A stretch of DNA of 64,000 bases. It comes from Vibrio astriarenae. Lineage in GTDB: Bacteria; Pseudomonadota; Gammaproteobacteria; Enterobacterales; Vibrionaceae. The notes below the pieces were generated by a model, which saw only the letters and a program-made list of their open reading frames with translations, searched no databases and had not been told where the DNA came from. How positions within the stretch are numbered: position 1 is the stretch's first letter; the number at the start of each line of letters is the position of its first letter. This document shows, in pieces, positions 49,835 to 62,697 of the stretch. The stretch spans positions 992,001-1,056,000 of the forward strand of contig NZ_CP047476.1 of NCBI RefSeq assembly GCF_010587385.1. The letters are read 5' to 3'. The position numbers and the translations under genes are program-made.

Positions 49835-50752
49835 TTATTTATCTGCAAGTTTCCAAGCACGGATATACTCAACTTCCATTGTCGTTGGTAGACCTGTCTC
49901 ACCTTGCAAGTCAACAGGGTAGAACTGATTACAATCCCAACGAGTGAACTGATCACCGCGCATGCCCAATGACAGCGCAACGTTCATATCGCGGTGCCAA
50001 TAAAGGTTCTTCTTATAACCCACCTGTTCACCGTTTACATACCACGTAATATCTTCAGGGGTGACGTTGACTGCATAAATAGCAAATTCTTCACGTGGGT
50101 CGAAATCCAACTTGTGTATATTTTGGTTAGTCTCTGCGAACGGCTTCGGACGCATCCATTTCGGTTTACCATTTTCAACAATCACGTTGTGTAGGTTATG
50201 GTCACTATGGAAGACATCATCCGATTCTTGTTGAAGCTCAACAACATCGATTTCAGAATATTGAACATCACCATCTTCTTTGAGAGTACGGTCGAATGCA
50301 GAATACAACCAGAATGCAGGTGATACGCCAGGGTGAAGATCCGCCCCTTTCATTTTAGCTTCATAATAGCCATAAACGCCTGTTGCTTTGGATTTAGCCA
50401 TGCCTGATTTGAAATACAACGGGAAATCATCCACTGGCTTTTTATTACAGCCATCCCAGAATTTACGAGTATGTTCTTCGTGTACGGCTGATAGCTTCAA
50501 AATACCATCTTCGACAACCGCGTTTTTGTCGTCCCAAGTCCAAACACCAAACGACTCTGGTTTGAAGTTCCATTTGTCCATATCACGAGTGGCAAACTCG
50601 TCAGACAGTTCATCAATTAACACCCACGTTTCACCTGCCTGCGCAGTATGGGGTTGATGAATCTCCTCAGCGATTGCAGCGCTAGAAAGTACACATGATG
50701 CCCCGATTAGAGCCAATGATAACTTATAGCTCACGCTTGTTTTATTTGTCAT
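49835..50752 (-). CDS. GH16 family glycoside hydrolase, kappa-carrageenase-like (copy A)
   Basis: 305 residues with a signal peptide (LALIGASCVLSSAAIA). GH16 catalytic motif at 167-172 (SEIDVVELQ: nucleophile Glu167, Asp169, acid/base Glu172), at nearly the same position as in kappa-carrageenase CgkA of Pseudoalteromonas carrageenovora. Recalled CgkA segments also agree: SDEF near the start, RKFWDGCN, YFKSGMAKSKATGVYGYYEA, HPGVSPAFWLYS, SDHNLHNVIVENGKPKWMRP, DITWYVNGEQVG and WDCNQFYPVD. Expected to cut internal beta-1,4 bonds of kappa-carrageenan outside the cell. No extra domains. About two-thirds identical to copy B. It is the only locus member on this side without a clear TCCCA palindrome upstream. 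Confidence 0.82.
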   Translation of the reverse strand: MTNKTSVSYKLSLALIGASCVLSSAAIAEEIHQPHTAQAGETWVLIDELSDEFATRDMDKWNFKPESFGVWTWDDKNAVVEDGILKLSAVHEEHTRKFWDGCNKKPVDDFPLYFKSGMAKSKATGVYGYYEAKMKGADLHPGVSPAFWLYSAFDRTLKEDGDVQYSEIDVVELQQESDDVFHSDHNLHNVIVENGKPKWMRPKPFAETNQNIHKLDFDPREEFAIYAVNVTPEDITWYVNGEQVGYKKNLYWHRDMNVALSLGMRGDQFTRWDCNQFYPVDLQGETGLPTTMEVEYIRAWKLADK

Positions 50753-50886
50753 AGTTTATCCTTAATTAATTTACAGCAAATAAGTAACAAACCCAATGCC
50801 ATGGAAATACAGACACAGACGCTAACTGTATCAATAGCATTGAAAATTACATTTATTAGTTTTATATGGAAAGGGTAGTTCTAATA

Positions 50887-51540
50887 TTAGTATGCTCTAG
50901 CACTCAAAACACCAACCTCTGAGTTTTCTATAAGCAAGGTATAATCTCTTGGATAATCAGTACCATTTTCTTTGTAATAGTTATATCTTGCATCATAAGC
51001 AAAATTTTCGTCACCAATATCATTTATATCAGAGTAAACCAGAATATATTTTGCCAATTTAAAATTTTGGTCTACATCAATATTACTATAGAAATAATTG
51101 ACTATATCACCATTACGTTCGACCCATTGAGAATTAATATCTTCACTAAGTGGCAAAAACTGCTCATCCGCAAGTACAAATGTCGGTTTTAATACGCCAT
51201 CGTCACTCGAGTAACTAAATATCTCAACACTGTATCCGTCAGCAAACTCTGGGAGTTCAAGCACAAACACCTTTGTAACTTCATCACCATTTACCATATA
51301 AGGTACTGAGTTATCGAAGGTAAAGAAAACAGTCTTTTCTTTTTCCAACTTCAACGGTTCAAACAACTCAATTTCATCATCATTGTTTCGGGCCATTTGT
51401 CGCCACATCTCAGAGACGTTAACGCCCTTATAACCTGGAACACCCGACAGCTCTGGTTTTACTACATATACATCACGGTTCGTGCAGCCATTGATTAGCA
51501 AGAGCGACATTAAACAGGTGATCTTATATTTGTATGACAT
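50887..51540 (-). CDS. MalM-like lipoprotein
   Basis: 217 residues from ATG 51540, which places the lipobox (LLINGC, Cys19) at a normal distance; the frame opens at 51561. The middle resembles MalM of the maltose operon: FFTFDNSVPYMVNG, KVFVLELPEFADGYSVEIFS, PTFVLADEQFLPLS. Predicted periplasmic-facing lipoprotein. MalM-type proteins accompany LamB porins; here the gene is divergent from a LamB-like porin across 278 bases with a TCCCA palindrome between. Assignment rests on pattern similarity and context, so it is moderate. Confidence 0.6.
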   Translation of the reverse strand: MSYKYKITCLMSLLLINGCTNRDVYVVKPELSGVPGYKGVNVSEMWRQMARNNDDEIELFEPLKLEKEKTVFFTFDNSVPYMVNGDEVTKVFVLELPEFADGYSVEIFSYSSDDGVLKPTFVLADEQFLPLSEDINSQWVERNGDIVNYFYSNIDVDQNFKLAKYILVYSDINDIGDENFAYDARYNYYKENGTDYPRDYTLLIENSEVGVLSARAY

Positions 51541-51643
51541 ATTATTCACAACCAGTTCCATTTGAAGTTGCCAAGAATATTAGCATGCAATCTATTAATA
51601 ATTTTGTGATCTGTTTCTCCTAAATTCATTTCTTAAACTAACG

Positions 51644-51658
51644 TCCCAAGATATGGGA
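51644..51658. promoter_or_regulatory. TCCCA-N5-TGGGA palindrome, site 1 (MalM-like/porin)
   Basis: TCCCAAGATATGGGA, both arms exact; 161 bases before the porin start and 104 before the MalM-like start. Candidate operator of the polysaccharide locus. Confidence 0.6.
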
Positions 51659-51818
51659 AAACAGAATTAATACTTTCAAATACGTTGAGATTAAATACTC
51701 ATACCTCTTATTATTAGCACCGCAATCTTATTAAAACGAACACATCAATCTTTCGTCATTGACTATCCATCGAGGTAATACCAATGAATTTAATCCAACA
51801 AATGACAAGGACTAAGTC

Positions 51819-53024
51819 ATGCGAAAAATATTTACACTCTCGCTGCTAGCATTATCAACACTCCCCTATCAGTCAATGGCTGATGATAGCTTTAAACTTA
51901 CAGGTTACGCACGTTATGGTATGGGCTATACCGAGGATGATCCGTTATGGAATAACTCGATCATGAACGGCATTAACGTTATCAAAACTGCCGGTAGCTA
52001 TTATGCATTGACGGGTCACCTAGCTAACCAAGGCATGGGTATGGAGTTGGGTCTCCAAAAAAGCTGGGCAGTGAATGACTCTAGATGGCGTGCACTATTT
52101 ATGGTTACTGATAATTACAATGCCAGCCCTTGGAAAACGGCACAGATGTTTGCAGGTGGATCTAATGTGATCGAAAGTAACCCAACAGCAGAGATTTGGG
52201 CAGGTCAACGTTATGCTCAGCGTGTGCAAATGCTACTCAACAACTACAAGCCTCTACTAAACGATGGTGTCGGTGGTGGTATCAAGAACTACGATGTTGG
52301 TTTCGGTAAAGTGAGTGTCGAGGCAATTTCCGGCATTCGTCAGAATGGTTATCCAAGCGACAGTAATGGTCGTTACGCGTTAATGACTTCCCTTAAAGAT
52401 ATCAAAATTGCTGACAAGCAAACTCTAGACTTCTATGCCAACTACGGTTTTGGTGACGGGCGTGATCGAACTTGGGGTACCGTTGATGACGGTTCAGCTT
52501 ATCAAATTGGTGGCATGTACAACCTAAACAGAAAAGGTAGCTACACTAAGTTCATGGTTCGCTACGGTGACAAAGTTAAAGAGAACCTCGTACGTCACGC
52601 TGGGCCTGCAGAAGACGGCGGTTCATTGGGGGTTTTCCTTTATGGACATGAGAAACTCACTGATAAGTTCGCCATGATGTACGCCTTCAGTCACGAAAAT
52701 AGTGACTTGAGCACCAACTGGAGTGGCGACAAAGAAAAATGGTATCAAGGCGTATTGCGTGGTGGTTATTACTACAACAAGCACCATAGTACGTGGCTAG
52801 AAACCGCCTATGACACGATTGACTTTGGTGACGACACAAACTCATCGTGGAAAGTCACCTTGTCACAAAATGTTTCCTTGGCTGATTACCTATTTGCTCG
52901 ACCCATCGTCCACTTCTATGTCTCTTATGGTGGTCTAGATACCGATCTAGTGCGTAACTCTGGGGCGAAGCAAGGCGTTAACGAAGCCGTCTCAGTGGGA
53001 ACGTATTTTGAGGTATTCCTGTAA
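51819..53024 (+). CDS. LamB-like carbohydrate porin
   Basis: 401 residues. AAGGA lies 7 bases before the ATG; signal peptide MRKIFTLSLLALSTLPYQSMA. It begins like maltoporins (FKLTGYARYGMGYTEDD; HLANQGMGMELGLQKSWAV; WAGQRYAQRVQMLLNN) and ends with a Phe near the terminus (GTYFEVFL). 18-strand sugar-specific outer-membrane channel, here presumably for carrageenan oligosaccharides. Own terminator downstream. Confidence 0.82.
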   Translation: MRKIFTLSLLALSTLPYQSMADDSFKLTGYARYGMGYTEDDPLWNNSIMNGINVIKTAGSYYALTGHLANQGMGMELGLQKSWAVNDSRWRALFMVTDNYNASPWKTAQMFAGGSNVIESNPTAEIWAGQRYAQRVQMLLNNYKPLLNDGVGGGIKNYDVGFGKVSVEAISGIRQNGYPSDSNGRYALMTSLKDIKIADKQTLDFYANYGFGDGRDRTWGTVDDGSAYQIGGMYNLNRKGSYTKFMVRYGDKVKENLVRHAGPAEDGGSLGVFLYGHEKLTDKFAMMYAFSHENSDLSTNWSGDKEKWYQGVLRGGYYYNKHHSTWLETAYDTIDFGDDTNSSWKVTLSQNVSLADYLFARPIVHFYVSYGGLDTDLVRNSGAKQGVNEAVSVGTYFEVFL

Positions 53025-53093
53025 AAACAATGCTCCTATATCGTTATAGAGTAGCCCCCGCTATTTTATATTTACAGTACGGCAATTAAATTC

Positions 53094-53125
53094 AAAAGCA
53101 ACCATGGTGAATGGTTGCTTTTTTT
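53094..53125 (+). terminator. Terminator of the porin gene
   Basis: AAAAGCAACCAT / ATGGTTGCTTTTTTT hairpin. Confidence 0.9.
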
Positions 53126-53223
53126 GTAGATTTGAATGTAATAAAAACCTCTTATTCGCCCATATATCGAACGCTGTGTTTATTTATAGTGAGCTTTATG
53201 GCGCTCACCATAAACCCGCAGTT

Positions 53224-53238
53224 TCCCACAAGATGGGA
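53224..53238. promoter_or_regulatory. TCCCA-N5-TGGGA palindrome, site 2 (MFS-sulfatase operon)
   Basis: TCCCACAAGATGGGA with extended symmetry (TTCCCA...TGGGAA), 183 bases before the MFS start. The space 53126-53420 otherwise holds no gene. Confidence 0.6.
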
Positions 53239-53420
53239 ATAGTAAACCACTCAAAATCTGCGTGATCTATGTCGACTATATTATCAATTCGCTGTGCTAA
53301 TTTAACTCTCGATGAAAAGATAGATTGCGTGTTCGAATTATAAATTAATACAAATAACCATTTCAGATTAAAAATTAATCAACAGTGGTTGCAACACATA
53401 TATACAAGGATTTGTTTACC

Positions 53421-55004
53421 ATGAAACAAAATAAGAACCTCCTATTCTACATGGCCATTATAGTCTTGAGCGGATTTGTATTTGGCGTCGATGCTGGGAT
53501 TATTTCAGGAACAGTAAAGTTCATTAAAGCGGAGTTCGGTCTTACCGACCTTCAAATTGGTACCGTCGTAAGTGCACCCGCTTTCGGTGCCATCATCGCT
53601 CTCTTGTTCAGCGGCAGTATCGTTGACAAGATTGGCCGTAAGAAAATGATGCTGGTTATTTCAGGTTTATACTTGGTATCAGCGATTGCCTCTACCTTCG
53701 CCAACAGCTACGAAGTGCTCGTGTTGGCTCGTATGCTTGGTGGCATGGCGTTCTGTTGTCTAAGTATCGCTTCTATGTACATTGGCGAACTCGCTCCAAG
53801 TAAAATGCGCGGTAAATTCGTGGCATCAAACCAGGTGATGATGGGTATCGGCTTCTTCGTTGCCTACTTAATCAACTATGGTTGTGTATTGTTAGTAAAC
53901 GAACAGTCCTTCCTATTCTCAACAGAGAACGTTTGGAGAACGATGTTTGCTACAGAGATCCCTGTCGTAATTCTTTGGACACTGACACTATTTAAGCTCC
54001 CTGAATCACCTCGCTGGTTGATGAAAAAAGGTTACAAAGAAGAAGCAGTGGCTGTTATTACTAAAGTAACCCCAGAAAAAGAAGTCAGCGGTGTTGTTCA
54101 AGAGATTCTTGAGAACCTGTCAAAAACAGACCACAGCATCCCTCTAGCTTCACAGCTTAAGATCCTTTTCTCACCACGAATGAAAACAATCTTAACGATT
54201 GGTATTGGTCTCGCTTTAGTTCAATCGTTCAGCGGTATGGGTGCGGTATCTTACTACTCACCAATGATCTTCGAACAAGTCGGCTTGGGTGAAAACAATG
54301 CCTTCTTCCAAACAACGCTTCTTGGTCTTATCAGTATCGTGTTTGCGATGATAGCGATGAAGCTTGTCGATAAAACCGGTCGTCGCACTCTGCTTTTAGT
54401 CGGTCTTCTTACCATTGCACTAAGTCACTTAACTATCTGGTATGGCTTTAGCAGCGCAAAATACGAAATCAATGCTGAGAAAGTCGTTGCTCTTGAGCAA
54501 AAAGTTGATACAACACCGCTACAAACTCTCGTTGGCAACACTTATGAGTCTGACCGTGAGTTTAAAAACGCCATTCGCCCACTTTACTCTGAGCATGACA
54601 TGACGCTTAACGAGGGCGCATTCATCAATGCTTTCATCAAACTTAATCCTTGGATGATCGTGACGGCAATCTTTGTATTTAAAGCCGCATTCTTCTTCTC
54701 GATTGGTCCAATGATGTGGGTAGTGTTCTCGGAAATAACTCCAAACCTTGTACGCTCAATCGCTATTCCATGCTTTGGCTTAGTAGCAAGCTTGGCCGCT
54801 TTCTTCGTACAGCGTTTCTTCCCATGGCAGCTCACCACATTTGGCGCAGCAAATACGTTCCTTAGCTACGCTATTTGCAGCTCAATCGGTATCTTGCTTG
54901 TGATGTTCATTCTTCCTGAAACAAAGAACAAGTCGATTGAAGAAATTGAAGAAATTTTGGTGGAAGGTGACCTATCAGAGCTTTCTCCGGCTCAAGCTAA
55001 ATAA
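53421..55004 (+). CDS. Sugar-porter MFS transporter
   Basis: 527 residues from ATG 53421 (AAGGAT 9 bases upstream); the frame opens at 53385. Twelve transmembrane helices with sugar-porter marks: GFVFGVDAGIISG in TM1, DKIGRKKMM after TM2, LPESPRWLMKKG at the central loop, DKTGRRTLL, and PETKNKSIEEIEEI at the end. An unusual extra periplasmic/cytoplasmic stretch of about 80 residues (about 330-415) interrupts the second half. Likely imports the mono- or oligosaccharide released by the GH16 enzymes. First gene of an operon with the sulfatase, 51 bases apart. Confidence 0.85.
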   Translation: MKQNKNLLFYMAIIVLSGFVFGVDAGIISGTVKFIKAEFGLTDLQIGTVVSAPAFGAIIALLFSGSIVDKIGRKKMMLVISGLYLVSAIASTFANSYEVLVLARMLGGMAFCCLSIASMYIGELAPSKMRGKFVASNQVMMGIGFFVAYLINYGCVLLVNEQSFLFSTENVWRTMFATEIPVVILWTLTLFKLPESPRWLMKKGYKEEAVAVITKVTPEKEVSGVVQEILENLSKTDHSIPLASQLKILFSPRMKTILTIGIGLALVQSFSGMGAVSYYSPMIFEQVGLGENNAFFQTTLLGLISIVFAMIAMKLVDKTGRRTLLLVGLLTIALSHLTIWYGFSSAKYEINAEKVVALEQKVDTTPLQTLVGNTYESDREFKNAIRPLYSEHDMTLNEGAFINAFIKLNPWMIVTAIFVFKAAFFFSIGPMMWVVFSEITPNLVRSIAIPCFGLVASLAAFFVQRFFPWQLTTFGAANTFLSYAICSSIGILLVMFILPETKNKSIEEIEEILVEGDLSELSPAQAK

Positions 55005-55055
55005 TCAGTAAAAGGCCCACTACTCGTGGGCCCTCTTTTCAATTTGGGAACACTT

Positions 55056-56588
55056 ATGAAAAAAAACATTATTATTCTACATACCGACCAACAACGCTTT
55101 GACAGCTTAGGTTGCAACGGTAATGAGCATGCACAAACCACAAATATTGACCAATTAGCTTCAGAGGGCTGTAACTTTTCTCGTCATATATCAACCAACG
55201 CAGCGTGTATGCCCTCAAGAGCAAGTTTGATGACGGGCTTGTATGTACCGGGTCATGGCGTTTCCTCAAACGGTATTCCACTGTGGCGTCGTGATAATGG
55301 TTGCGAAGACAAGAATAACGTCATCAGCCAGCGTCTATTTGGTGTTGACGTGATGGATAAGATCCCAACGATAGCCGACATGCTCTCTGAAAATGGCTAC
55401 AACACCGCTCTGTTTGGCAAATTGCACCTAGAGCCAATGCTGGCAGATCGTTCCTACGACTTCTACGACTCTTATGCAAGATGGGAAGAAGAAGAGACCG
55501 AGTTTGACGAAGCCCCCTATTACGGGTTTGCAAAAAAGAAACTGATCCTTGGACATGGTGAAGCTCCATGTGGTTACAACCGTGGCCACTATGGTCGTTG
55601 GCTACATAAAAACTTTCCAGAGTATTTAGATAAGGTGTTCCCGGGCGCAGATATCAATACTAAAGAAGGTTCAATTGCCGATGATATCTATGCTTCTAAG
55701 TTACCAGAAGAGTTGCACAATACCATGTGGCTAGCCGATGAAGTCTGCCAACATCTCGAGCAGCAGCAGACAAATGACAGCGATAAACCAAACTTTATCT
55801 TTGTAGGTTACCCAGACCCTCACCACCCGTTTACACCACCCGAGTCAATTGCGGCGGAGTTCCATGATATCCCTCTTCCAGAATTTGCGCGAAAAGAGGA
55901 TCTAGTCGGCAAGAAGCCTGACGCAGTTGAACAAACAATGCAGAACTTTAGTGCAAGTAAAGAAGACCTGGCTAAAGCGTACCGTTATACTGCAGCGTCG
56001 GTAAAACTTATCGACAAGTCCGTAGGAAAAATCATTGAGAAAACCAAAGAGCTGGGTATCTATGACGACACCATCATCGTATTTACTTCTGACCATGGTG
56101 ACTTCCTTGGCGATCTCGATATGATCTGTAAATATGATGTCGCATTCAATAACCTATTGCATTTACCGTTCGTTCTTAAGCCAGCCAAAGGAATGACCGT
56201 ACCAAGCGATTGTGCGACGCCTATGAGTAACGCTGATGTTGTTCCTACACTCCTCTCTTTAGTAGGAGTTGAAGTACCCACATTCGTTCAAGGCGTTGAT
56301 ATATTCAGTGAGGCCGCACAGGACAATACACCTATGGTCACCTGTTACACCGCGCGAGAGCAAAATCGTAACATTTCACTGTTTGATCACCACTTCAGAT
56401 ACACCTACTACTTAGATACTGGCGAAGAAGAGCTTTACGATCACAGAGAGGACATCAAGGAGACGGTTAACCTTGCGGTGAGTACTGACCCTATCATCCG
56501 TTCTATATGTGATTCATTCAAGGGTAGGCTTTTCCAAAAACACATCGAATGTGATTTGGGCATATTTAATCATTATGCTTTATGGTAA
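55056..56588 (+). CDS. Sulfatase (formylglycine-dependent, family S1)
   Basis: 510 residues from ATG 55056; the in-frame start at 55026 lies in the transcript leader. Begins with the metal-binding pattern IIILHTDQQRFDSLGCNGN and has the sulfatase signature AACMPSRASLMTG, with Cys51 to be oxidised to formylglycine; also TALFGKLHL and FTSDHGDFLGD. No signal peptide, so it should act in the cytoplasm after uptake. It would remove a sulfate ester from imported galactan oligosaccharides. The maturase (FGE or anSME) is not in the window. S1 subfamily not assigned. Confidence 0.88.
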   Translation: MKKNIIILHTDQQRFDSLGCNGNEHAQTTNIDQLASEGCNFSRHISTNAACMPSRASLMTGLYVPGHGVSSNGIPLWRRDNGCEDKNNVISQRLFGVDVMDKIPTIADMLSENGYNTALFGKLHLEPMLADRSYDFYDSYARWEEEETEFDEAPYYGFAKKKLILGHGEAPCGYNRGHYGRWLHKNFPEYLDKVFPGADINTKEGSIADDIYASKLPEELHNTMWLADEVCQHLEQQQTNDSDKPNFIFVGYPDPHHPFTPPESIAAEFHDIPLPEFARKEDLVGKKPDAVEQTMQNFSASKEDLAKAYRYTAASVKLIDKSVGKIIEKTKELGIYDDTIIVFTSDHGDFLGDLDMICKYDVAFNNLLHLPFVLKPAKGMTVPSDCATPMSNADVVPTLLSLVGVEVPTFVQGVDIFSEAAQDNTPMVTCYTAREQNRNISLFDHHFRYTYYLDTGEEELYDHREDIKETVNLAVSTDPIIRSICDSFKGRLFQKHIECDLGIFNHYALW

Positions 56589-56604
56589 TTAATTGACTCT
56601 ATTT

Positions 56605-56633
56605 AAAAAGCGAGCTGAACAGTTCGCTTTTTT
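56605..56633 (+). terminator. Terminator of the MFS-sulfatase operon
   Basis: AAAAAGCGAGCT-GAAC-AGTTCGCTTTTTT hairpin with one mismatch. Confidence 0.8.
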
Positions 56634-56660
56634 ATTGCAAATGAAAATTAGGCAATCCCA

Positions 56661-56675
56661 TCCCATATATCGGGA
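56661..56675. promoter_or_regulatory. TCCCA-N5-TGGGA-type palindrome, site 3 (GH16 copy B)
   Basis: TCCCATATATCGGGA, one base from the full palindrome, 186 bases before the GH16 start. Confidence 0.55.
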
Positions 56676-56860
56676 CGATTGATTAAGGAATTAATGTGAG
56701 GATATAGATCACAATATCAATCCACAATAGTGATAGAATTTAACCATAGCTCTGATGAAGGCAATTAACTAATCCGCTTGCTATAATTAATTGCCTCACA
56801 GAACTATTAATTACCATCATTTAAATAAACTTATTAAGATAGAATCATAAGGATATATAT

Positions 56861-57772
56861 ATGGCTTTAAACTTGTCTAGTAAACGGAACTTGATCCCCT
56901 TATTAATGGGTGCTTCATGTCTTTTCGTTGGTAATGTATTTGCGGCAGATGTTCTTCCACATACTGCAAAACCAGGCGAGAAATGGGTTCTTCAAGACGA
57001 CCGTTCAGATGAATTCGAGTTTGAAGATACTCGCAAATGGGATTTCCAACCTAACCCTTTCCAGATTTGGACTTGGGAGAAAGATAATGCCATCGTTGAA
57101 GACGGTAAACTGAAGTTGACTGCGTCTTATGAGAAACATAACCGCAAGTTCGAAGATGGCTGTAACGAAAAAACGATCTACGATTTTCCACTATTCTTCA
57201 AATCAGGCATGGTGAAATCTAAGGCCTCTGGTGTCTACGGCTATTACGAAGCGAAAATCAAAGGTACAGATTTACACCCTGGCGTATCTCCTGCATTCTG
57301 GATCTACAGTAACATTGATACGGCACTGAAAAACGAAGGTGATATCCAGTACGCTGAAATCGACGTTGTAGAGTTGCTTCAAGATGAAGAAGATCCTACG
57401 CACAGTGATCACAACCTTCACAACATCATTGTTAAAGATGGTAAACCACAGTGGGTACGTCCTAAGCCAAACCCAGAAACACACCAGAACCTACACAACC
57501 TTGGCTTCGACCCACGTGAAGAGTTTGCTATTTATGCTGTCAATGTAACACCTGAAGATATTACATGGTATGTAAATGGTGAAGAAGTAGGTCACAAGAA
57601 GAACCTTTACTGGCATAAAGAGATGAACGTTGCCCTATCTCTGGGTATGCGTGGCAAGAAATTCACTCGTTGGGATTGTAACCAATTCTACCCAGTTGAC
57701 GTTGCAGAGGCAGATAGCGGCCTACCAACAACAATGGAAGTCGAATACGTTCGCGTATGGAACAAAGAATAA
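56861..57772 (+). CDS. GH16 family glycoside hydrolase, kappa-carrageenase-like (copy B)
   Basis: 303 residues with signal peptide (LIPLLMGASCLFVGNVFA). Catalytic motif at 166-171 (AEIDVVELL). Shares with copy A and with CgkA, as recalled, the stretches SDEF, FFKSGMVKSKASGVYGYYEA, LHPGVSPAFWIYS, SDHNLHNIIVKDGKPQWVRP, NVTPEDITWYVNGEEVG and WDCNQFYPVD. Single domain, secreted. A duplicated sister of the gene at 49835, but in the opposite orientation and 6 kb away. Endo-acting on a carrageenan-type galactan is the best guess. Confidence 0.82.
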   Translation: MALNLSSKRNLIPLLMGASCLFVGNVFAADVLPHTAKPGEKWVLQDDRSDEFEFEDTRKWDFQPNPFQIWTWEKDNAIVEDGKLKLTASYEKHNRKFEDGCNEKTIYDFPLFFKSGMVKSKASGVYGYYEAKIKGTDLHPGVSPAFWIYSNIDTALKNEGDIQYAEIDVVELLQDEEDPTHSDHNLHNIIVKDGKPQWVRPKPNPETHQNLHNLGFDPREEFAIYAVNVTPEDITWYVNGEEVGHKKNLYWHKEMNVALSLGMRGKKFTRWDCNQFYPVDVAEADSGLPTTMEVEYVRVWNKE

Positions 57773-57942
57773 TAGGACTTCTCGACTAAACGTTTCATTC
57801 CTTTCTTTCGTTATTATTTAGCATTTTAGCTATATTTGGGTTGGTTTTGGCATTGCTGCATTTGGGGGTAGCAATGCTGGAGCTAACTCTTTTTTTATTA
57901 CCACGCATCATTGGTTACATATTGAATCAATAAACTCAATTA

Positions 57943-57957
57943 TCCCATCAATCGGAA
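57943..57957. promoter_or_regulatory. Degenerate TCCCA palindrome, site 4 (modular GH16)
   Basis: TCCCATCAATCGGAA: left arm exact, right arm two bases off; 119 bases before the start of the modular GH16. The 303-base space 57773-58075 shows no gene. Confidence 0.45.
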
Positions 57958-58075
57958 TATTTATACAGGATACAATTCATTAGATTTTCATCACGTTAAT
58001 ATATTCAATGAAAACTATTATTAGTCACCGAACATCCCTACTAACTAATATATTAACCAACGAGAATACAAAATA

Positions 58076-59953
58076 ATGAAATTACGTTACCTTCTGCTGT
58101 CTACCCTCGCGGTGGCCATATCAAGTGCTAATGCAAGCGTTGTTCGACCCACGGGCTTTCACCCTGGTGAAGTGCGTTGGCAGGAACTTGGCGACAAAAG
58201 TGATGATTTTACTTCAGGATCACTCAACCCAGGCAAGTGGGTAAATGCGCCCGCAAGCCTTAATGTCGGTGCATGGACCTTTGACCCTGCAAATACCTAT
58301 GTCCAAGACGGAAACCTCGTCATTGAAACCACTCAAGACACGCATATTCGCCGCTTCGCCGACAGTTGTTGGGATGGGGTTGCTGGTGGGCCACCGCAGT
58401 TTGTCGATCGCGAGTTCTACTATAAGTCTGGTGCCGTTCATTCCATTGCGAAAGGGGTCTACGGGTTTTACGAAGCCAAAATCAAAGGTGTTGAAATTTT
58501 CCCTGGCTTGAGCCCTGCATTTTGGTTGTACAGTGACGACCATCCCTATGATGATCGCAACGATCCAACTAAGCAATATGTAGACTATAGCGAAATCGAC
58601 ATCGTTGAATTACAACAAGCGGACTGGCGAAGTCCAACCGATTTTGATGACCAATATGATATGGACCATAACCTTCATGCTCGAGTTGAGGAAAACGGTC
58701 AAATCGTTTGGAAGCGACCAAAGCCAAACCCTGAAGCGCAACTCCTGCACTATCGAGCACCTTTTGACCCACGTTTAGACTTCCACACTTATGCTGTAGA
58801 AAACCGCCCTGACCGCATTACATGGTATGTCGATGGTGTTGAAGTCGGCTCAAAACCCAATAAATGGTGGCACCGTCCGATGCGCGTTACCTTCTCTCAA
58901 GGTCTTAGACGCCACCTCATCAAATATAATCCTGACTGCCAAAGAGCGGATCCTAATCCTGACAATATCATTTCCGAGGGATTTCCTGAAAAAGCACGCA
59001 TGAAGGTCAACTATGTCAAAACTTGGAAAGCGCTGCCTTCCGTCTGGGTTGAAGATCAAGACAAATACACCGGCACTGAATATCCAAATAGCAAGCCACT
59101 GGATGTGAGTGTTAACTATCACGGCGGCAGCGATTTCTATGTTGAATCTGGTAATTACAATGGCGTGACAGTCAACCTCGTCGAGAAAAATGCCTCTGGT
59201 GTCGTACAAGTTATTCGAAGTTCAAATGACCCTAGCACAACCTCAGATGCCAATAAATATGCAGGCAAAACGACGTTATCTCTTGACCTGTCAGGAGTGA
59301 CACCAAGCAATCAATTACCAAACGGTCACTACTACGCACTAGCACCGGTATTCAGTTCATCCAATGGCAACCCTGTATATGCTCAGAGCCCAATAGAGCC
59401 AATCAAGATTACTGGCAATGGTGACAGTAATGACGTTCCTGTCACTGGTGTTGAGCTAACCCCACAAACTGCGTCGGTCAAAGTGAATGAAACCGTGAAA
59501 CTGACCAGCACAGTTAAGCCATACAACGCCAGCGACAAAGGAGTGTACTACTACTCTGATAACTCTAACATCGCATCAGTTAATAATTCCGGTGTCGTCA
59601 CGGGTAAAGTAAAGGGAACAACCAATATCACTGTCACCACCAATGATGGTGCATACACAAGCCAAAGCGTTGTAAACGTTATTGACAATAGTGGGGGGTG
59701 GACACCAGTGACAGGTGTTGAAGTGTCGCCATCTAGTCTTAGTCTATCATTAGGACAAACTAAACTTCTGAACGTGTCAGTTCTCCCAAGTCACGCGAGT
59801 AACCAAAGCGTGACATTCCAATCAAACAACCCTTCAGTCGCAATTGTCAACGGGCAAGGGCAAGTGACGGCAAAAGGAAAAGGGACAGCTCAAGTAACGG
59901 TAAAAACGAAGAATGGTGGTTTTACTGACTCTGTCACTATCACCGTGAAGTAA
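58076..59953 (+). CDS. Modular GH16 hydrolase with two bacterial Ig-like (Big2) domains
   Basis: 625 residues. Signal peptide MKLRYLLLSTLAVAISSANA. GH16 domain about 25-335 with catalytic motif 173-178 (SEIDIVELQ), diverged from copies A and B and with longer loops (CWDGVAGGPPQFVDREFYYK; DDHPYDDRNDPTKQYVDY). A linker domain of about 120 residues follows, then two tandem Big2 domains (about 459-540 VTGVELTPQTASVKVNETVK and about 546-625 VTGVEVSPSSLSLSLGQTKL). Recalled CgkA also ends in such a domain. The extra modules probably bind polymer or the cell surface. Related substrates (furcellaran, hybrid carrageenan) are possible. Confidence 0.82.
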   Translation: MKLRYLLLSTLAVAISSANASVVRPTGFHPGEVRWQELGDKSDDFTSGSLNPGKWVNAPASLNVGAWTFDPANTYVQDGNLVIETTQDTHIRRFADSCWDGVAGGPPQFVDREFYYKSGAVHSIAKGVYGFYEAKIKGVEIFPGLSPAFWLYSDDHPYDDRNDPTKQYVDYSEIDIVELQQADWRSPTDFDDQYDMDHNLHARVEENGQIVWKRPKPNPEAQLLHYRAPFDPRLDFHTYAVENRPDRITWYVDGVEVGSKPNKWWHRPMRVTFSQGLRRHLIKYNPDCQRADPNPDNIISEGFPEKARMKVNYVKTWKALPSVWVEDQDKYTGTEYPNSKPLDVSVNYHGGSDFYVESGNYNGVTVNLVEKNASGVVQVIRSSNDPSTTSDANKYAGKTTLSLDLSGVTPSNQLPNGHYYALAPVFSSSNGNPVYAQSPIEPIKITGNGDSNDVPVTGVELTPQTASVKVNETVKLTSTVKPYNASDKGVYYYSDNSNIASVNNSGVVTGKVKGTTNITVTTNDGAYTSQSVVNVIDNSGGWTPVTGVEVSPSSLSLSLGQTKLLNVSVLPSHASNQSVTFQSNNPSVAIVNGQGQVTAKGKGTAQVTVKTKNGGFTDSVTITVK

Positions 59954-59984
59954 TCTTTCGACTTTTCGAATCGCATACAATAAA

Positions 59985-60018
59985 GGGTTAGATGCTAGTG
60001 TATCTAACCCCTTCTTTT
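59985..60018 (+). terminator. Terminator of the modular GH16 gene
   Basis: GGGTTAGAT / ATCTAACCC hairpin followed by CCTTCTTTT. Confidence 0.75.
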
Positions 60019-60237
60019 GTTGCTCAGCAAACTACCTTAAATGAATTACTACGTACTAGCTGATTTTGAGCGGCCGATTAATCGCTTTCTAATACCCTCA
60101 GAGTTGTCTTTACGAGGTCTAGTTGTAAGTTCTCTGTATACCGAATTTTAACCTCTAGTCACAAATACTCTGCCATTTAACAAGATCGTCTTCTATTTGT
60201 TTGGACTAAACGCACTAGAACGAAGGGAAATGAACTT

Positions 60238-60420
60238 ATGTTTAAATTCTATCGATTGGTGTTGCAATTGTACTATTGACCACCGAAATACAAACACCCA
60301 GCACATCTAGTAAATCAGGATCAGATAGCCAATTAATCAATAAGATACTGTGTAAACCTGGTCAGATTTGTCATGAAGTAAACCCACAGTCAAAAAAAAC
60401 GCCATACAACTGTATGGCGT
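60238..60420 (+). pseudogene. Possible frameshifted small secreted peptide
   Basis: An ATG at 60238 with a good ribosome site (AAGGGA) opens MFKFYRLVLQLYY and stops. A +1 shift near 60258 would instead give a signal-like run (VAIVLLTTEIQTPS) and a Cys-containing tail (NKILCKPGQICHEVNPQS). The shifted frame then runs through the GH127 terminator, so the natural end is unclear. Weak; it may be chance. The rest of 59954-60441 holds only terminators. Confidence 0.2.
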
Positions 60421-60422
60421 TT
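60392..60422 (-). terminator. Terminator of the GH127 gene
   Basis: On the minus strand ACGCCATAC-AGTT-GTATGGCGTTTTTTTT, 20 bases after the stop. Confidence 0.9.
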
Positions 60423-60441
60423 GCGATCTTACAACTCGTGT

Positions 60442-62325
60442 TTAGCCACGAGGGAACCAGATACCCATATCTTGTTCCTCTCGGTTCGCCCAAGCGAAGT
60501 AAGGAATCAGACGAACAGACACTTTCTTATTCAAGTCAGGCTCGACTTTAAAGTACAACGTCTCTTTCGTTGGTCGTACGTCCATTTGAGTCTTGAGGCC
60601 AACCATATCATAAGGAAGATCTTTAATTGTCTCCTCCTCAAATACGGCATCGACTGGCAACACGAGATCATCAATGGTGTATTGCTCGCTATCGATATCA
60701 GAGCCCTCTAAACAGTATACAACCGGGCCACGCTTAACTGCGACCATTCCGTTACTTTGCTCAAGCATTGGGTTTGCACCATAAAGCTCTACTTTCATTG
60801 GCAAGACGATATTAATTTGTTCACCTGATCTAACGGTTTGCTTTTTGATTCCTGAATTGGTCGCTACGCCGTTAACCGTTGCTTCATCACACCAAGCCGG
60901 GATTCTATAGCTGAGTTCAAAGCCGTCCGCAGGCGCATCCACGACTTTAATGGCAACCGTTTCAGTCCAAGGGTAATTGGTGTCTATGACAACCTTCGCA
61001 CGCTCTCCCTTTGTCAGTTCAGTATCGATTTCACTGCCCGCAAACAGGTTGATAGAGATACCCTGTTCATTCTTAGAGTAGATAAACTTAGGCATACCGG
61101 TGTAAGTACGCAGAAGTTGCGGAGGACAGCACCAACAATCAAAAGTAAAGAAACGCTGGTTAGGTACGTGCGAGAACTGCTCAAATGTCGGTTCAATATG
61201 ATGATCACGACGATGTGAGCCTGGGTTAGCATAGAAATAACGCTTCATGTCTAAGCTTGAACCAGAAATACCTGAGTTAAACATGATGGTTTCAAACCAA
61301 TCACCGAATTCCGCTTCCCCTGTTACATTAAGCATACGCTTTGCCCACATTGCACCAGCAATATTCGCGCATGTTTCGTTATAAGCGACACGATGTGGCA
61401 AGTTATACTCTGAAGCAAAAGCCTCATAAACACGGTCACCTCGGTCAGAAATGCCAACATATTGAGGGCCTAACGCACCCGTAATGTAGATACGACGTTT
61501 AACCAAATCTTTCCAAATGCGACTGACGGCATCTAATAGCGCCGGCTCTTCCGTGTGTGAATAGACATCTGTCGCACCCGCATACAAATAGGCCCCCGTT
61601 ACAGCATGACCGACAGGTTGGGTTTCATCTCTCAGCGGAGTACGATTTTGTGAGCAATCTTTACCAGAGTGCGTCTCACTCGCGGCTTCCAGTTTACGGC
61701 CACGCATTGAGACAAAGATATCAGCTAGCTCTAGGTAACGGTCATTTCCTGTTGTTCGATACAGGTCCACTAAGCCCATGATTTGACTTGGGTTAAAGCC
61801 AAAGTTAGCCAATTCGTACGGCTCTGGAGAGAACAAGTCCCATAGATAATCTGCATTTTTAATCGCGACGTTCAGTAAGCGCTCATCACCCGTTGCTTCA
61901 AAGTGAACGCACCCCAAGGTGTGCAGATGTCCCATGTTGTATAGCTCATGAACTTCGATATCAACCCAACGTTCCACGTCAGTAAGCAGCGTCTGAGTAC
62001 CGATGTAGCCATCTTCTTCTAAGCTAGCTTCAATCCATGGGATATATTTGTTGATGACATCTAGGATACGCTCATCTTGAGTGGTCGCATATTGGTTACA
62101 GCAGCCCTCTAAGAATTTATAACAGTCTCCATCTGACCAATAGTTGTCGTGAAACTTGCCTTCCACTTCTCCAGCTGCGATACCGAAGTTTAATAGACGC
62201 GCAGCATTGGTCTCATTGAGCAAAGCGGCTTCGAGGTTATAGATAATCTCCATGTAGTTTTCGACACGGTTTGCCCAAAAACCACTCGTGAGTCTCGCCT
62301 CACCTGTTTTTATATTTGAAAACAT
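60442..62325 (-). CDS. GH127 family glycosidase (DUF1680)
   Basis: 627 residues from ATG 62325, which follows AAGGATTAAGC; the frame opens 48 bases earlier at a GTG without a ribosome site. (alpha/alpha)6-barrel family: SGFWANRVENYMEIIYNLEA, DCYKFLEGC, VHELYNMGHL, ITGALGPQY. The residues that bind zinc and catalyse in beta-L-arabinofuranosidase HypBA1 (E-x-C, then a C-C pair) are present as Glu317-T-Cys319 and Cys399-Cys400 (CWCCPPQ). No signal peptide, so cytoplasmic. Some GH127 members of carrageenan loci in Zobellia remove 3,6-anhydro-D-galactose, which would suit this neighbourhood; L-arabinose or another sugar remains possible. Confidence 0.85.
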   Translation of the reverse strand: MFSNIKTGEARLTSGFWANRVENYMEIIYNLEAALLNETNAARLLNFGIAAGEVEGKFHDNYWSDGDCYKFLEGCCNQYATTQDERILDVINKYIPWIEASLEEDGYIGTQTLLTDVERWVDIEVHELYNMGHLHTLGCVHFEATGDERLLNVAIKNADYLWDLFSPEPYELANFGFNPSQIMGLVDLYRTTGNDRYLELADIFVSMRGRKLEAASETHSGKDCSQNRTPLRDETQPVGHAVTGAYLYAGATDVYSHTEEPALLDAVSRIWKDLVKRRIYITGALGPQYVGISDRGDRVYEAFASEYNLPHRVAYNETCANIAGAMWAKRMLNVTGEAEFGDWFETIMFNSGISGSSLDMKRYFYANPGSHRRDHHIEPTFEQFSHVPNQRFFTFDCWCCPPQLLRTYTGMPKFIYSKNEQGISINLFAGSEIDTELTKGERAKVVIDTNYPWTETVAIKVVDAPADGFELSYRIPAWCDEATVNGVATNSGIKKQTVRSGEQINIVLPMKVELYGANPMLEQSNGMVAVKRGPVVYCLEGSDIDSEQYTIDDLVLPVDAVFEEETIKDLPYDMVGLKTQMDVRPTKETLYFKVEPDLNKKVSVRLIPYFAWANREEQDMGIWFPRG

Positions 62326-62682
62326 GCTTAATCCTTCAACATTTGTATTTGGAACTGATTGAATCTCTTTCACTTATTTGCAAAGCTAATTGGTCATATT
62401 CAATCTACAACTAATTAACTCTATGAACTTTATTTAGAATATAAAACGTCGATCCGAGAACCATTTCCCAGCCAACAATTAAATAGAGCCAATAAGTACT
62501 CTTTTTGCTTTTTAGCCTTAGAAAGCACAATGCAAACTATATCAAGCCGTCATTTAACAATGATTAATCGTTAATAAACCGTTATTTAACAGATGACTGC
62601 CAATCGATTAGTTATTATTTTTACCATTAACCCATCAAAGTTCCGTGAACTAAGTCACATCAGATATTTATTGGTCGAACTA

Positions 62683-62697
62683 TCCCATATGATGGAA
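62683..62697. promoter_or_regulatory. Degenerate TCCCA palindrome, site 5 (GH127)
   Basis: TCCCATATGATGGAA: left arm exact, right arm one base off; 358 bases before the GH127 start. The 637-base space 62326-62962 is AT-rich without a gene, and this is its only notable element. Confidence 0.45.

What the first reader, a model, noticed from the sequence alone, without database searches (positions are those of the whole stretch)
51644..62697. Shared 15-bp palindrome TCCCA-N5-TGGGA in the promoter regions of the polysaccharide locus
Exact copies lie at 51644 (MalM-like/porin) and 53224 (MFS-sulfatase), a one-mismatch copy at 56661 (GH16 copy B), and degenerate copies at 57943 (modular GH16) and 62683 (GH127). 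Each is in the intergenic region before a transcription unit. I saw no such palindrome elsewhere in 64 kb on a visual scan. The cluster encodes no regulator, so an unlinked factor recognising this odd-spaced palindrome would explain coordinated control. Only GH16 copy A lacks a clear site.
Basis: seen in the sequence. Interest (0 to 1): 0.8.

Follow-up and report, generated by a model that had tools for sequence, protein, structure and literature searches.

The report
Operator of an IclR-family carrageenan regulator
The repeated DNA palindrome is very probably the docking site of an IclR-family regulator whose gene lies just outside the window, and it sits at a fixed distance from a CRP-like site, so a seaweed-sugar (kappa-carrageenan) regulon probably answers to both its own sugar and general carbon shortage.

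Summary
The palindrome is real; the claim that the cluster has no regulator fails outside the window. Exact TCCCA-N5-TGGGA occurs twice in the window (0.03 expected) and six times in the genome: three in one 24-kb carrageenan cluster, three elsewhere (about two expected). An IclR-family gene sits 2.7 kb past the window end. The box belongs to a composite: box, 22 bp, CRP-like site (TCACA), then often a -10-like hexamer that would put CRP near -41.5. TYCCA-N5-TGGRA-N33-TCACA occurs in 16 of 227 genus genomes, exactly those that carry iclR. Between sister species eight box pairs agree at 78 of 80 arm bases and 29 of 40 spacer bases. Best reading: an IclR-family sugar-acid sensor, linked to dgoDKA in relatives, controls a kappa-carrageenan regulon together with CRP; activation is somewhat likelier than repression. 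Binding, effector and sign are untested.

The parts
51644..51658 (-). IclR-type box (TCCCATATCTTGGGA read on -) between MalM-like and LamB
   Evidence: arms 10/10 the same in the sister genome
51605..51620 (-). CRP-like site GGAGAAACAGATCACA, 23 bp after the box, toward MalM-like/GH16A
53224..53238 (+). IclR-type box before MFS-sulfatase
   Evidence: top matrix score; arms 10/10, spacer 3/5 the same in the sister
53261..53276 (+). CRP-like site CGTGATCTATGTCGAC (left half only), 22 bp after the box
   Evidence: nearly the same in the sister; lacks TCAC
56661..56675 (+). IclR-type box before GH16 copy B
56698..56713 (+). CRP-like site GAGGATATAGATCACA, 22 bp after the box
   Evidence: -10-like TAGAAT 28 nt past its centre
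57943..57957 (+). IclR-type box (2 mismatches) before modular GH16
   Evidence: arms 10/10, spacer 2/5 the same in the sister
57980..57995 (+). CRP-like site TTAGATTTTCATCACG, 22 bp after the box
   Evidence: -10-like TATTAT 28 nt past its centre
62683..62697 (-). IclR-type box before GH127 (TTCCATCATATGGGA on -)
   Evidence: arms 9/10 the same in the sister
62644..62659 (-). CRP-like site TGTGACTTAGTTCACG, 23 bp after the box
49835..50752 (-). GH16 copy A; possibly downstream gene of MalM-like-GH16A
   Evidence: Pfam GH16; 68% identical to GH16 copy B, a kappa-carrageenase-like protein; gene order kept
50887..51561 (-).
   Evidence: homologue in the same place in the sister (69%) and a weak one in Aliagarivorans (28%)
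51819..53024 (+). LamB-family porin
   Evidence: Pfam LamB 1.6e-43
53385..55004 (+). MFS sugar porter
55026..56588 (+). sulfatase with a C-M-P-S-R stretch, resembling S1 sulfatases
56861..57772 (+). GH16 copy B, kappa-carrageenase-like
   Evidence: 5ocq E 9e-104, 1dyp 1.6e-103
58076..59953 (+). modular GH16 (kappa-carrageenase-like) with Big_2 domains
60442..62373 (-). GH127, probable 3,6-anhydro-D-galactosidase
   Evidence: Pfam; role by analogy to Zobellia GH127 (PMC5698469, passages)

Best explanation
The palindrome is the operator of the IclR-family protein encoded 2.7 kb beyond the window (C2:1058702-1059427). SHOWN by sequence: boxes between MalM-like/GH16A and LamB, and before MFS-sulfatase, GH16B, GH16C, GH127, iclR and dgoDKA/aldehyde dehydrogenase; boxes occur with the iclR gene across genomes; 6 of 10 own gene-facing directions have the TCAC half of a CRP-like site starting 22-23 bp after the box. 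INFERRED: IclR dimers centred near -79 (and, in many relatives, near -58) act with cAMP-CRP at about -41.5, so the regulon needs both a pathway intermediate (2-keto-3-deoxy-D-galactonate, D-galactonate or 3,6-anhydro-D-galactonate) and catabolite relief. Activation is my first choice (about 60%), because the CRP-like half, where found, lies on the gene side of the box at a spacing fixed almost to the base pair.
For: 19 of 21 iclR upstream regions (20 genomes, own and sister included) hold the palindrome with <=1 mismatch, the top-ranked of the 5-bp-arm palindromes enumerated; 17 of 19 without own and sister. A matrix from 12 distinct non-own, non-sister boxes ranks the seven intergenic cluster boxes 1-4, 7, 9 and 11 in 83 kb. 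TCACA falls at offset +22 in 26 of 67 gene-facing directions (next-best offset 2); at +21 to +23 it is found in 28 of 67 gene-facing and 0 of 27 other directions. The composite pattern occurs in 16 of 227 genus genomes, the same 16 that carry iclR; reversed control 3 hits in 3 genomes. Own genome: 7 composite hits, 6 in the cluster; control 1. -10-like hexamers lie 28-29 nt past the CRP centre in 16 of 34 boxes. Second box at 21 bp: mean 5.63 of 10 matches against 2.69 over all distances, 35 boxes. Photobacterium sp. DA100, not used before, shows the full composite before iclR. Motif shape and 21-bp tandem resemble published IclR group 1 (PMC8222616; abstract, passages and part of Results).
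Against: Own LamB, aldehyde dehydrogenase and crp-anSME directions lack TCAC at the expected place, and MFS has only the left half. The crp-anSME box (64397) has 2 mismatches and overlaps the predicted start of a neighbouring ORF, so it is doubtful. Alginatibacterium iclR has no <=1-mismatch box within 300 bp, nor has the 57%-identity relative in G054. Of the 16 well-placed -10-like hexamers, the 10 at 29 nt are all iclR promoters, so not independent. Apart from dgoDKA, own promoters lack a clear second box. Most iclR genomes are one genus. No binding, expression or effector data; nothing here shows activation rather than repression.
Confidence: 0.82

Rival explanations
1. The same IclR-family protein binds the box (so this shares the regulator with the best explanation and the odds overlap) but represses: without inducer it hinders CRP or the RNA polymerase alpha-CTD (in the manner recalled for CytR with CRP, or KdgR), and a pathway sugar acid releases it.
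For: IclR-family regulators include repressors, activators and dual ones (PMC8222616, passage); NCBIfam KdgR is the best-scoring model, far below its cut-off (116.8 against 275 bits). Fixed spacing to CRP also fits co-repression.
Against: Where the CRP-like half is found, the box lies upstream of it rather than over the core promoter.
Confidence: 0.33
2. The Crp/Fnr-like protein encoded beside anSME (C2:1056582-1057229), not CRP, reads the TCACA element, or reads the palindrome itself.
For: It lies in the cluster; homologues also occur near the cluster in G400, L026 and L070.
Against: Many iclR loci show the full composite without a homologue of that gene in the 20 kb fetched (for example L045-L049, L072-L077). 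The element resembles the standard CRP site as recalled, and other cNMP-binding ORFs, one of CRP size, exist elsewhere in the genome (C1:325291).
Confidence: 0.08
3. The palindromes are RNA-level or incidental structures (short hairpins), or chance.
For: At <=2 mismatches the window is not enriched; the 51644 site scores as a weak terminator-like hairpin.
Against: Arms the same at 78/80 against spacers 29/40 between sisters; fixed spacing to TCACA; same genomes as iclR.
Confidence: 0.03

Closest known systems
IclR-family group 1 operators (Suvorova and Gelfand 2021, PMC8222616; GKTYCRYW3-4RYGRAMC)
   Same: Odd-length palindrome of the TYC...GRA type; tandem sites 21 bp apart lie within the published 18-22; autoregulatory position
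   Different: The outer A is often G here (TCCCA/TGGGA); a CRP site at fixed spacing is not mentioned in the parts I read
'GalR', IclR-family TF beside dgoK and a TTT transporter in Salinivirga HL-109 (PMC5507952, passages only); similar Azospirillum iclR-dgoK-dgoA-TTT operon
   Same: IclR protein next to 2-keto-3-deoxygalactonate genes; about 40% identity to the Azospirillum protein
   Different: No carrageenan genes are described in the passages seen; here the cluster includes kappa-carrageenase-like, sulfatase and GH127 genes. The Azospirillum stretch has no box with <=1 mismatch
Zobellia galactanivorans carrageenan regulon (PMC5698469, passages)
   Same: GH127, anhydrogalactose dehydrogenase, cycloisomerase, kinase and aldolase induced together by carrageenan
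   Different: Regulator there is AraC-family CgrA with SusCD import; here an IclR-family protein and a LamB-type porin
KdgR (gammaproteobacterial pectin regulon)
   Same: IclR family and sugar-acid theme
   Different: Operator differs (PMC8222616 Table 1 as seen); NCBIfam KdgR cut-off not met

Membership tests
IclR family of transcription factors | HTH_IclR plus IclR_C domains | tested here: met
   Pfam PF09339 44.3 bits (cut-off 22) and PF01614 102.6 bits (cut-off 24)
IclR group 1 operators | GKTYCRYW3-4RYGRAMC palindrome | tested here: inconclusive
   Compared by eye only: boxes TYCCA-N5-TGGRA fit the TYC...GRA core, but the outer A is often G
IclR group 1 operators | tandem sites 18-22 nt apart (a feature of many, not all, groups) | tested here: met
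   Second box at 21 bp in many relatives and before own dgoD; not before most own promoters
IclR group 1 operators | Protein binds the operator | not testable with these tools
   No binding assay
KdgR | NCBIfam equivalog score at or over 275 bits | tested here: not met
   116.8 bits
KdgR | GAAAC-type operator | tested here: not met
   Box arms are TYCCA/TGGRA against the KdgR motif printed
CRP class II promoter | TGTGA-N6-TCACA-like site centred near -41.5 | tested here: inconclusive
   TCACA half strong, left half weak; -10-like hexamer 28-29 nt past centre in 16 of 34; transcription starts unmapped
kappa-carrageenan utilisation system | kappa-carrageenase, GH127, sulfatase, anhydrogalactose catabolic genes | tested here: met
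   By sequence only: (DauB 5olc E 8.9e-82)
kappa-carrageenan utilisation system | Growth on carrageenan | not testable with these tools
   No culture data

The most novel reading that the evidence does not exclude
A fixed promoter grammar (IclR box at about -79, often a second at -58, CRP at -41.5) makes an IclR-family sugar-acid sensor an obligate co-activator with CRP; this ready-made module, ancestrally serving sugar-acid uptake and dgoDKA, was copied before promoter after promoter of an acquired kappa-carrageenan system, so a whole polysaccharide regulon was recruited by spreading one composite operator.
Probability: 0.35. Interest if true: 0.65.

Novelty: new member of a known kind. Interest (0 to 1): 0.5.

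Why it matters
It names a specific candidate regulator, operator and co-regulator for a kappa-carrageenan regulon in a Vibrio-like bacterium, where the carrageenan regulator I found described is AraC-family CgrA of Zobellia. It gives base-pair-exact predictions that a gel shift and a few reporters could settle, and it suggests how a sugar-acid regulon may have been extended to a seaweed polysaccharide. In the library searched, the words carrageenan and IclR occur together in 5 papers; by titles and occurrence counts none appears to be about this, and I read passages of one of them (PMC12125979).

Tried and rejected
Window-wide enrichment at <=2 mismatches: none. Whole-genome one-mismatch scan: near background, 85 against 71. 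Chance, an unlinked regulator and the Crp-like protein as reader of the palindrome were considered and set lower (see rivals). The seventh own-genome composite hit, C1:1261665, lies before a chemoreceptor-like ORF (judged by eye from its translation); the sister genome has only two composite hits, at iclR and dgoD, so I treat it as probable chance. Pseudocolwellia and a MAG with close GH127 genes have no iclR relative at E <= 1e-20; their three loci hold no <=1-mismatch site except one in L023. The class-wide search found iclR only in the own genome of 369. The built-in promoter scan was uninformative: 11 found, 31 expected. Whether a terminator separates MalM-like from GH16A is inconclusive (one weak stem). 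Structure prediction was not run.
Full report
OBSERVATION. Exact TCCCA-N5-TGGGA occurs at 51644 and 53224 and nowhere else in 64 kb; 100 shuffles averaged 0.03. The other three copies have 1, 2 and 1 mismatches (56661, 57943, 62683). At up to two mismatches the window holds 19 against 18.1 expected, so the weak copies cannot be argued from counts alone. Genome-wide (4.8 Mb, two contigs) the exact palindrome occurs at six places. Three lie in one cluster (51644, 53224, and 71757 in window coordinates, just beyond the window) and three elsewhere: two inside ORFs and one between two ORFs. Scaling one search gives about two by chance. At one mismatch the genome is near background, 85 against 71 for the reversed pattern.

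WHAT THE CLUSTER IS. GH16 copy B matches solved kappa-carrageenases (5ocq E 9e-104, 1dyp 1.6e-103), the modular copy does so more weakly, and copy A is 68% identical to copy B. GH127, a sulfatase with a C-M-P-S-R stretch, a LamB porin and an MFS porter are present. Beyond the window follow a Crp-like gene, an anaerobic sulfatase maturase, an IclR-family gene, a TetR-family and a RibD_C gene, a dgoD-dgoK-dgoA operon and an aldehyde dehydrogenase. The dgoD product matches Zobellia DauB (5olc, E 8.9e-82), which PMC5698469 (passages) reports as 3,6-anhydro-D-galactonate cycloisomerase. From GH16A to the aldehyde dehydrogenase this is 23.5 kb. It looks like a kappa-carrageenan utilisation cluster; function is inferred from sequence.

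THE REGULATOR. The IclR-family protein (241 aa; both Pfam domains over cut-off) starts 2.7 kb past the window end. Relatives at E <= 1e-60 were found in 11 of 394 genomes of the order, 16 of 227 of the genus and 1 of 369 of the class, own genome included each time, and in 3 of 5 genomes that hold a close GH127. I fetched about 20 kb round each relative. Of 21 iclR upstream regions of 300 bp (20 genomes; one has two paralogues), 19 hold the palindrome with at most one mismatch, and it ranked first among the 5-bp-arm palindromes enumerated. Without own and sister the count is 17 of 19, 16 of the 17 at 90-97 bp before the start codon; the own box is 138 bp before it. The misses are Alginatibacterium (2 mismatches) and the 57%-identity relative in G054 (3 mismatches). 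The segment PKSTVHRI, which I take for the recognition helix, is the same in 13 of 14 proteins aligned and differs in G054 (PKTTVHRT).

TRANSFER TEST. A matrix built only from 12 distinct boxes upstream of iclR in other, non-sister genomes was run over window plus adjacent stretch (83 kb). Ranks 1-4 were 53224, 62683, 66549 (before own iclR) and 71757 (dgoD/aldehyde dehydrogenase); 51644, 57943 and 56661 ranked 7, 9 and 11. Rank 5 (64397, before crp-anSME) overlaps the predicted start of an ORF. Ranks 6 (16755) and 10 (10544) are outside the cluster and rank 8 (65307) lies inside anSME.

SISTER SPECIES. In G400 the cluster is 90-99% identical in GH16A, MFS, sulfatase, GH16B, GH16C, LamB and GH127 proteins, 84-96% in crp-like, anSME, iclR, dgo and aldehyde dehydrogenase proteins, and 69% in MalM-like. 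The seven intergenic regions aligned are 58-76% identical. Across eight box pairs the arms agree at 78 of 80 bases and the spacers at 29 of 40 (Fisher p 9e-5); without the doubtful 64397 the counts are 69 of 70 and 24 of 35.

COMPOSITE ARCHITECTURE. Laid out from the box toward each gene, TCACA recurs at one distance. One search took 57 sites (<=1 mismatch, plus 57943 and 64397 by hand) from own and relatives' loci; 9 inside ORFs, near-identical rows and rows cut by locus ends were dropped. TCACA lies at offset +22 in 26 of 67 gene-facing directions; the next-best offset has 2; at +21 to +23 the count is 28 of 67 against 0 of 27 directions that face no gene start. In the own genome six promoters have TCAC there: MalM-like/GH16A, GH16B, GH16C, GH127, iclR and dgoDKA. 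MFS has the left half only; LamB, aldehyde dehydrogenase and crp-anSME lack it. The 16-mer looks like a CRP site with a strong right half (G at position 4 in 26 of 34; the 34 were chosen for TCAC, apart from two MFS promoters). Hexamers with at least 5 of 6 TATAAT matches are commonest 29 (10, all iclR promoters) and 28 (6) nt past its centre, which would put CRP near -41.5 and the box near -79. A second box sits 21 bp after the first in many relatives and before own dgoD (mean 5.63 of 10 against 2.69 overall; 35 boxes).

GENOME ASSOCIATION. TYCCA-N5-TGGRA-N33-TCACA occurs in 16 of 227 genus genomes (24 hits; reversed control 3 hits in 3 genomes). They are the same 16 that carry iclR. Since many of these hits are the iclR promoter itself, presence together is partly linkage; but others are not: own and G400 dgoD, and in G438 an aldehyde dehydrogenase and a GH127-like ORF (the last named by eye from its translation). 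In the own genome the slightly wider pattern hits 7 places, 6 in the cluster, control 1. Photobacterium sp. DA100, found later, has box, second box, CRP-like site and iclR in the same order.

ORIGIN AND EFFECTOR. In Vibrio-like genomes with no GH16 homologue in the fetched 20 kb, iclR sits near dgoD-dgoK-dgoA; in L046 the genes between look like a TRAP transporter by my reading of the translations (no family search). Azospirillum relatives (about 40% identity) include an iclR-dgoK-dgoA-tripartite transporter operon, like the IclR 'GalR' of PMC5507952 (passages). The shared part is 2-keto-3-deoxygalactonate metabolism, so a galactonate-type acid is the likely effector. This is inference.

MECHANISM AND VERDICT. 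Near base-exact spacing between box and CRP-like site, with the box upstream, fits joint activation better than simple blocking, but co-repression is not excluded. The family, motif type and 21-bp tandem agree with PMC8222616 (abstract, passages and part 1 of Results read). What looks new is the assignment to a carrageenan regulon and the fixed CRP spacing; searches listed no paper that appears to describe it, judging by titles, abstract beginnings and the passages I read. That the host is Vibrionaceae is inferred from two large contigs and the nearest named IclR relative; no tool named it.

Noticed in passing
window coordinates 65265-66512 (L008:1265-2512), outside the window: Anaerobic sulfatase-maturase gene (TIGR03942, 509 bits) beside a Crp-like gene, fitting the Cys-type sulfatase in the window.
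   Followed up: partly
G438 C2, L070 and L078: One genome carries two iclR paralogues (81% and 46% identity), each with a box upstream, near sulfatase, MFS and aldehyde dehydrogenase homologues.
   Followed up: partly
L050:9363-9662: Alginatibacterium iclR has a TCCCG-N5-CGGGA palindrome about 250 bp upstream, perhaps a variant operator.
   Followed up: no
window 49835-62373: Pfam named no second exo-galactosidase (GH2 or GH129) among the cluster proteins searched; complete oligosaccharide breakdown may need genes elsewhere, not looked for.
   Followed up: no
G000:C1:1261665 (L082): The only own-genome composite hit outside the cluster lies before a chemoreceptor-like ORF; no such hit in the sister genome.
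   Followed up: partly
window 16755: Moderate matrix hit (13.2 bits) outside the cluster, context not examined.
   Followed up: no
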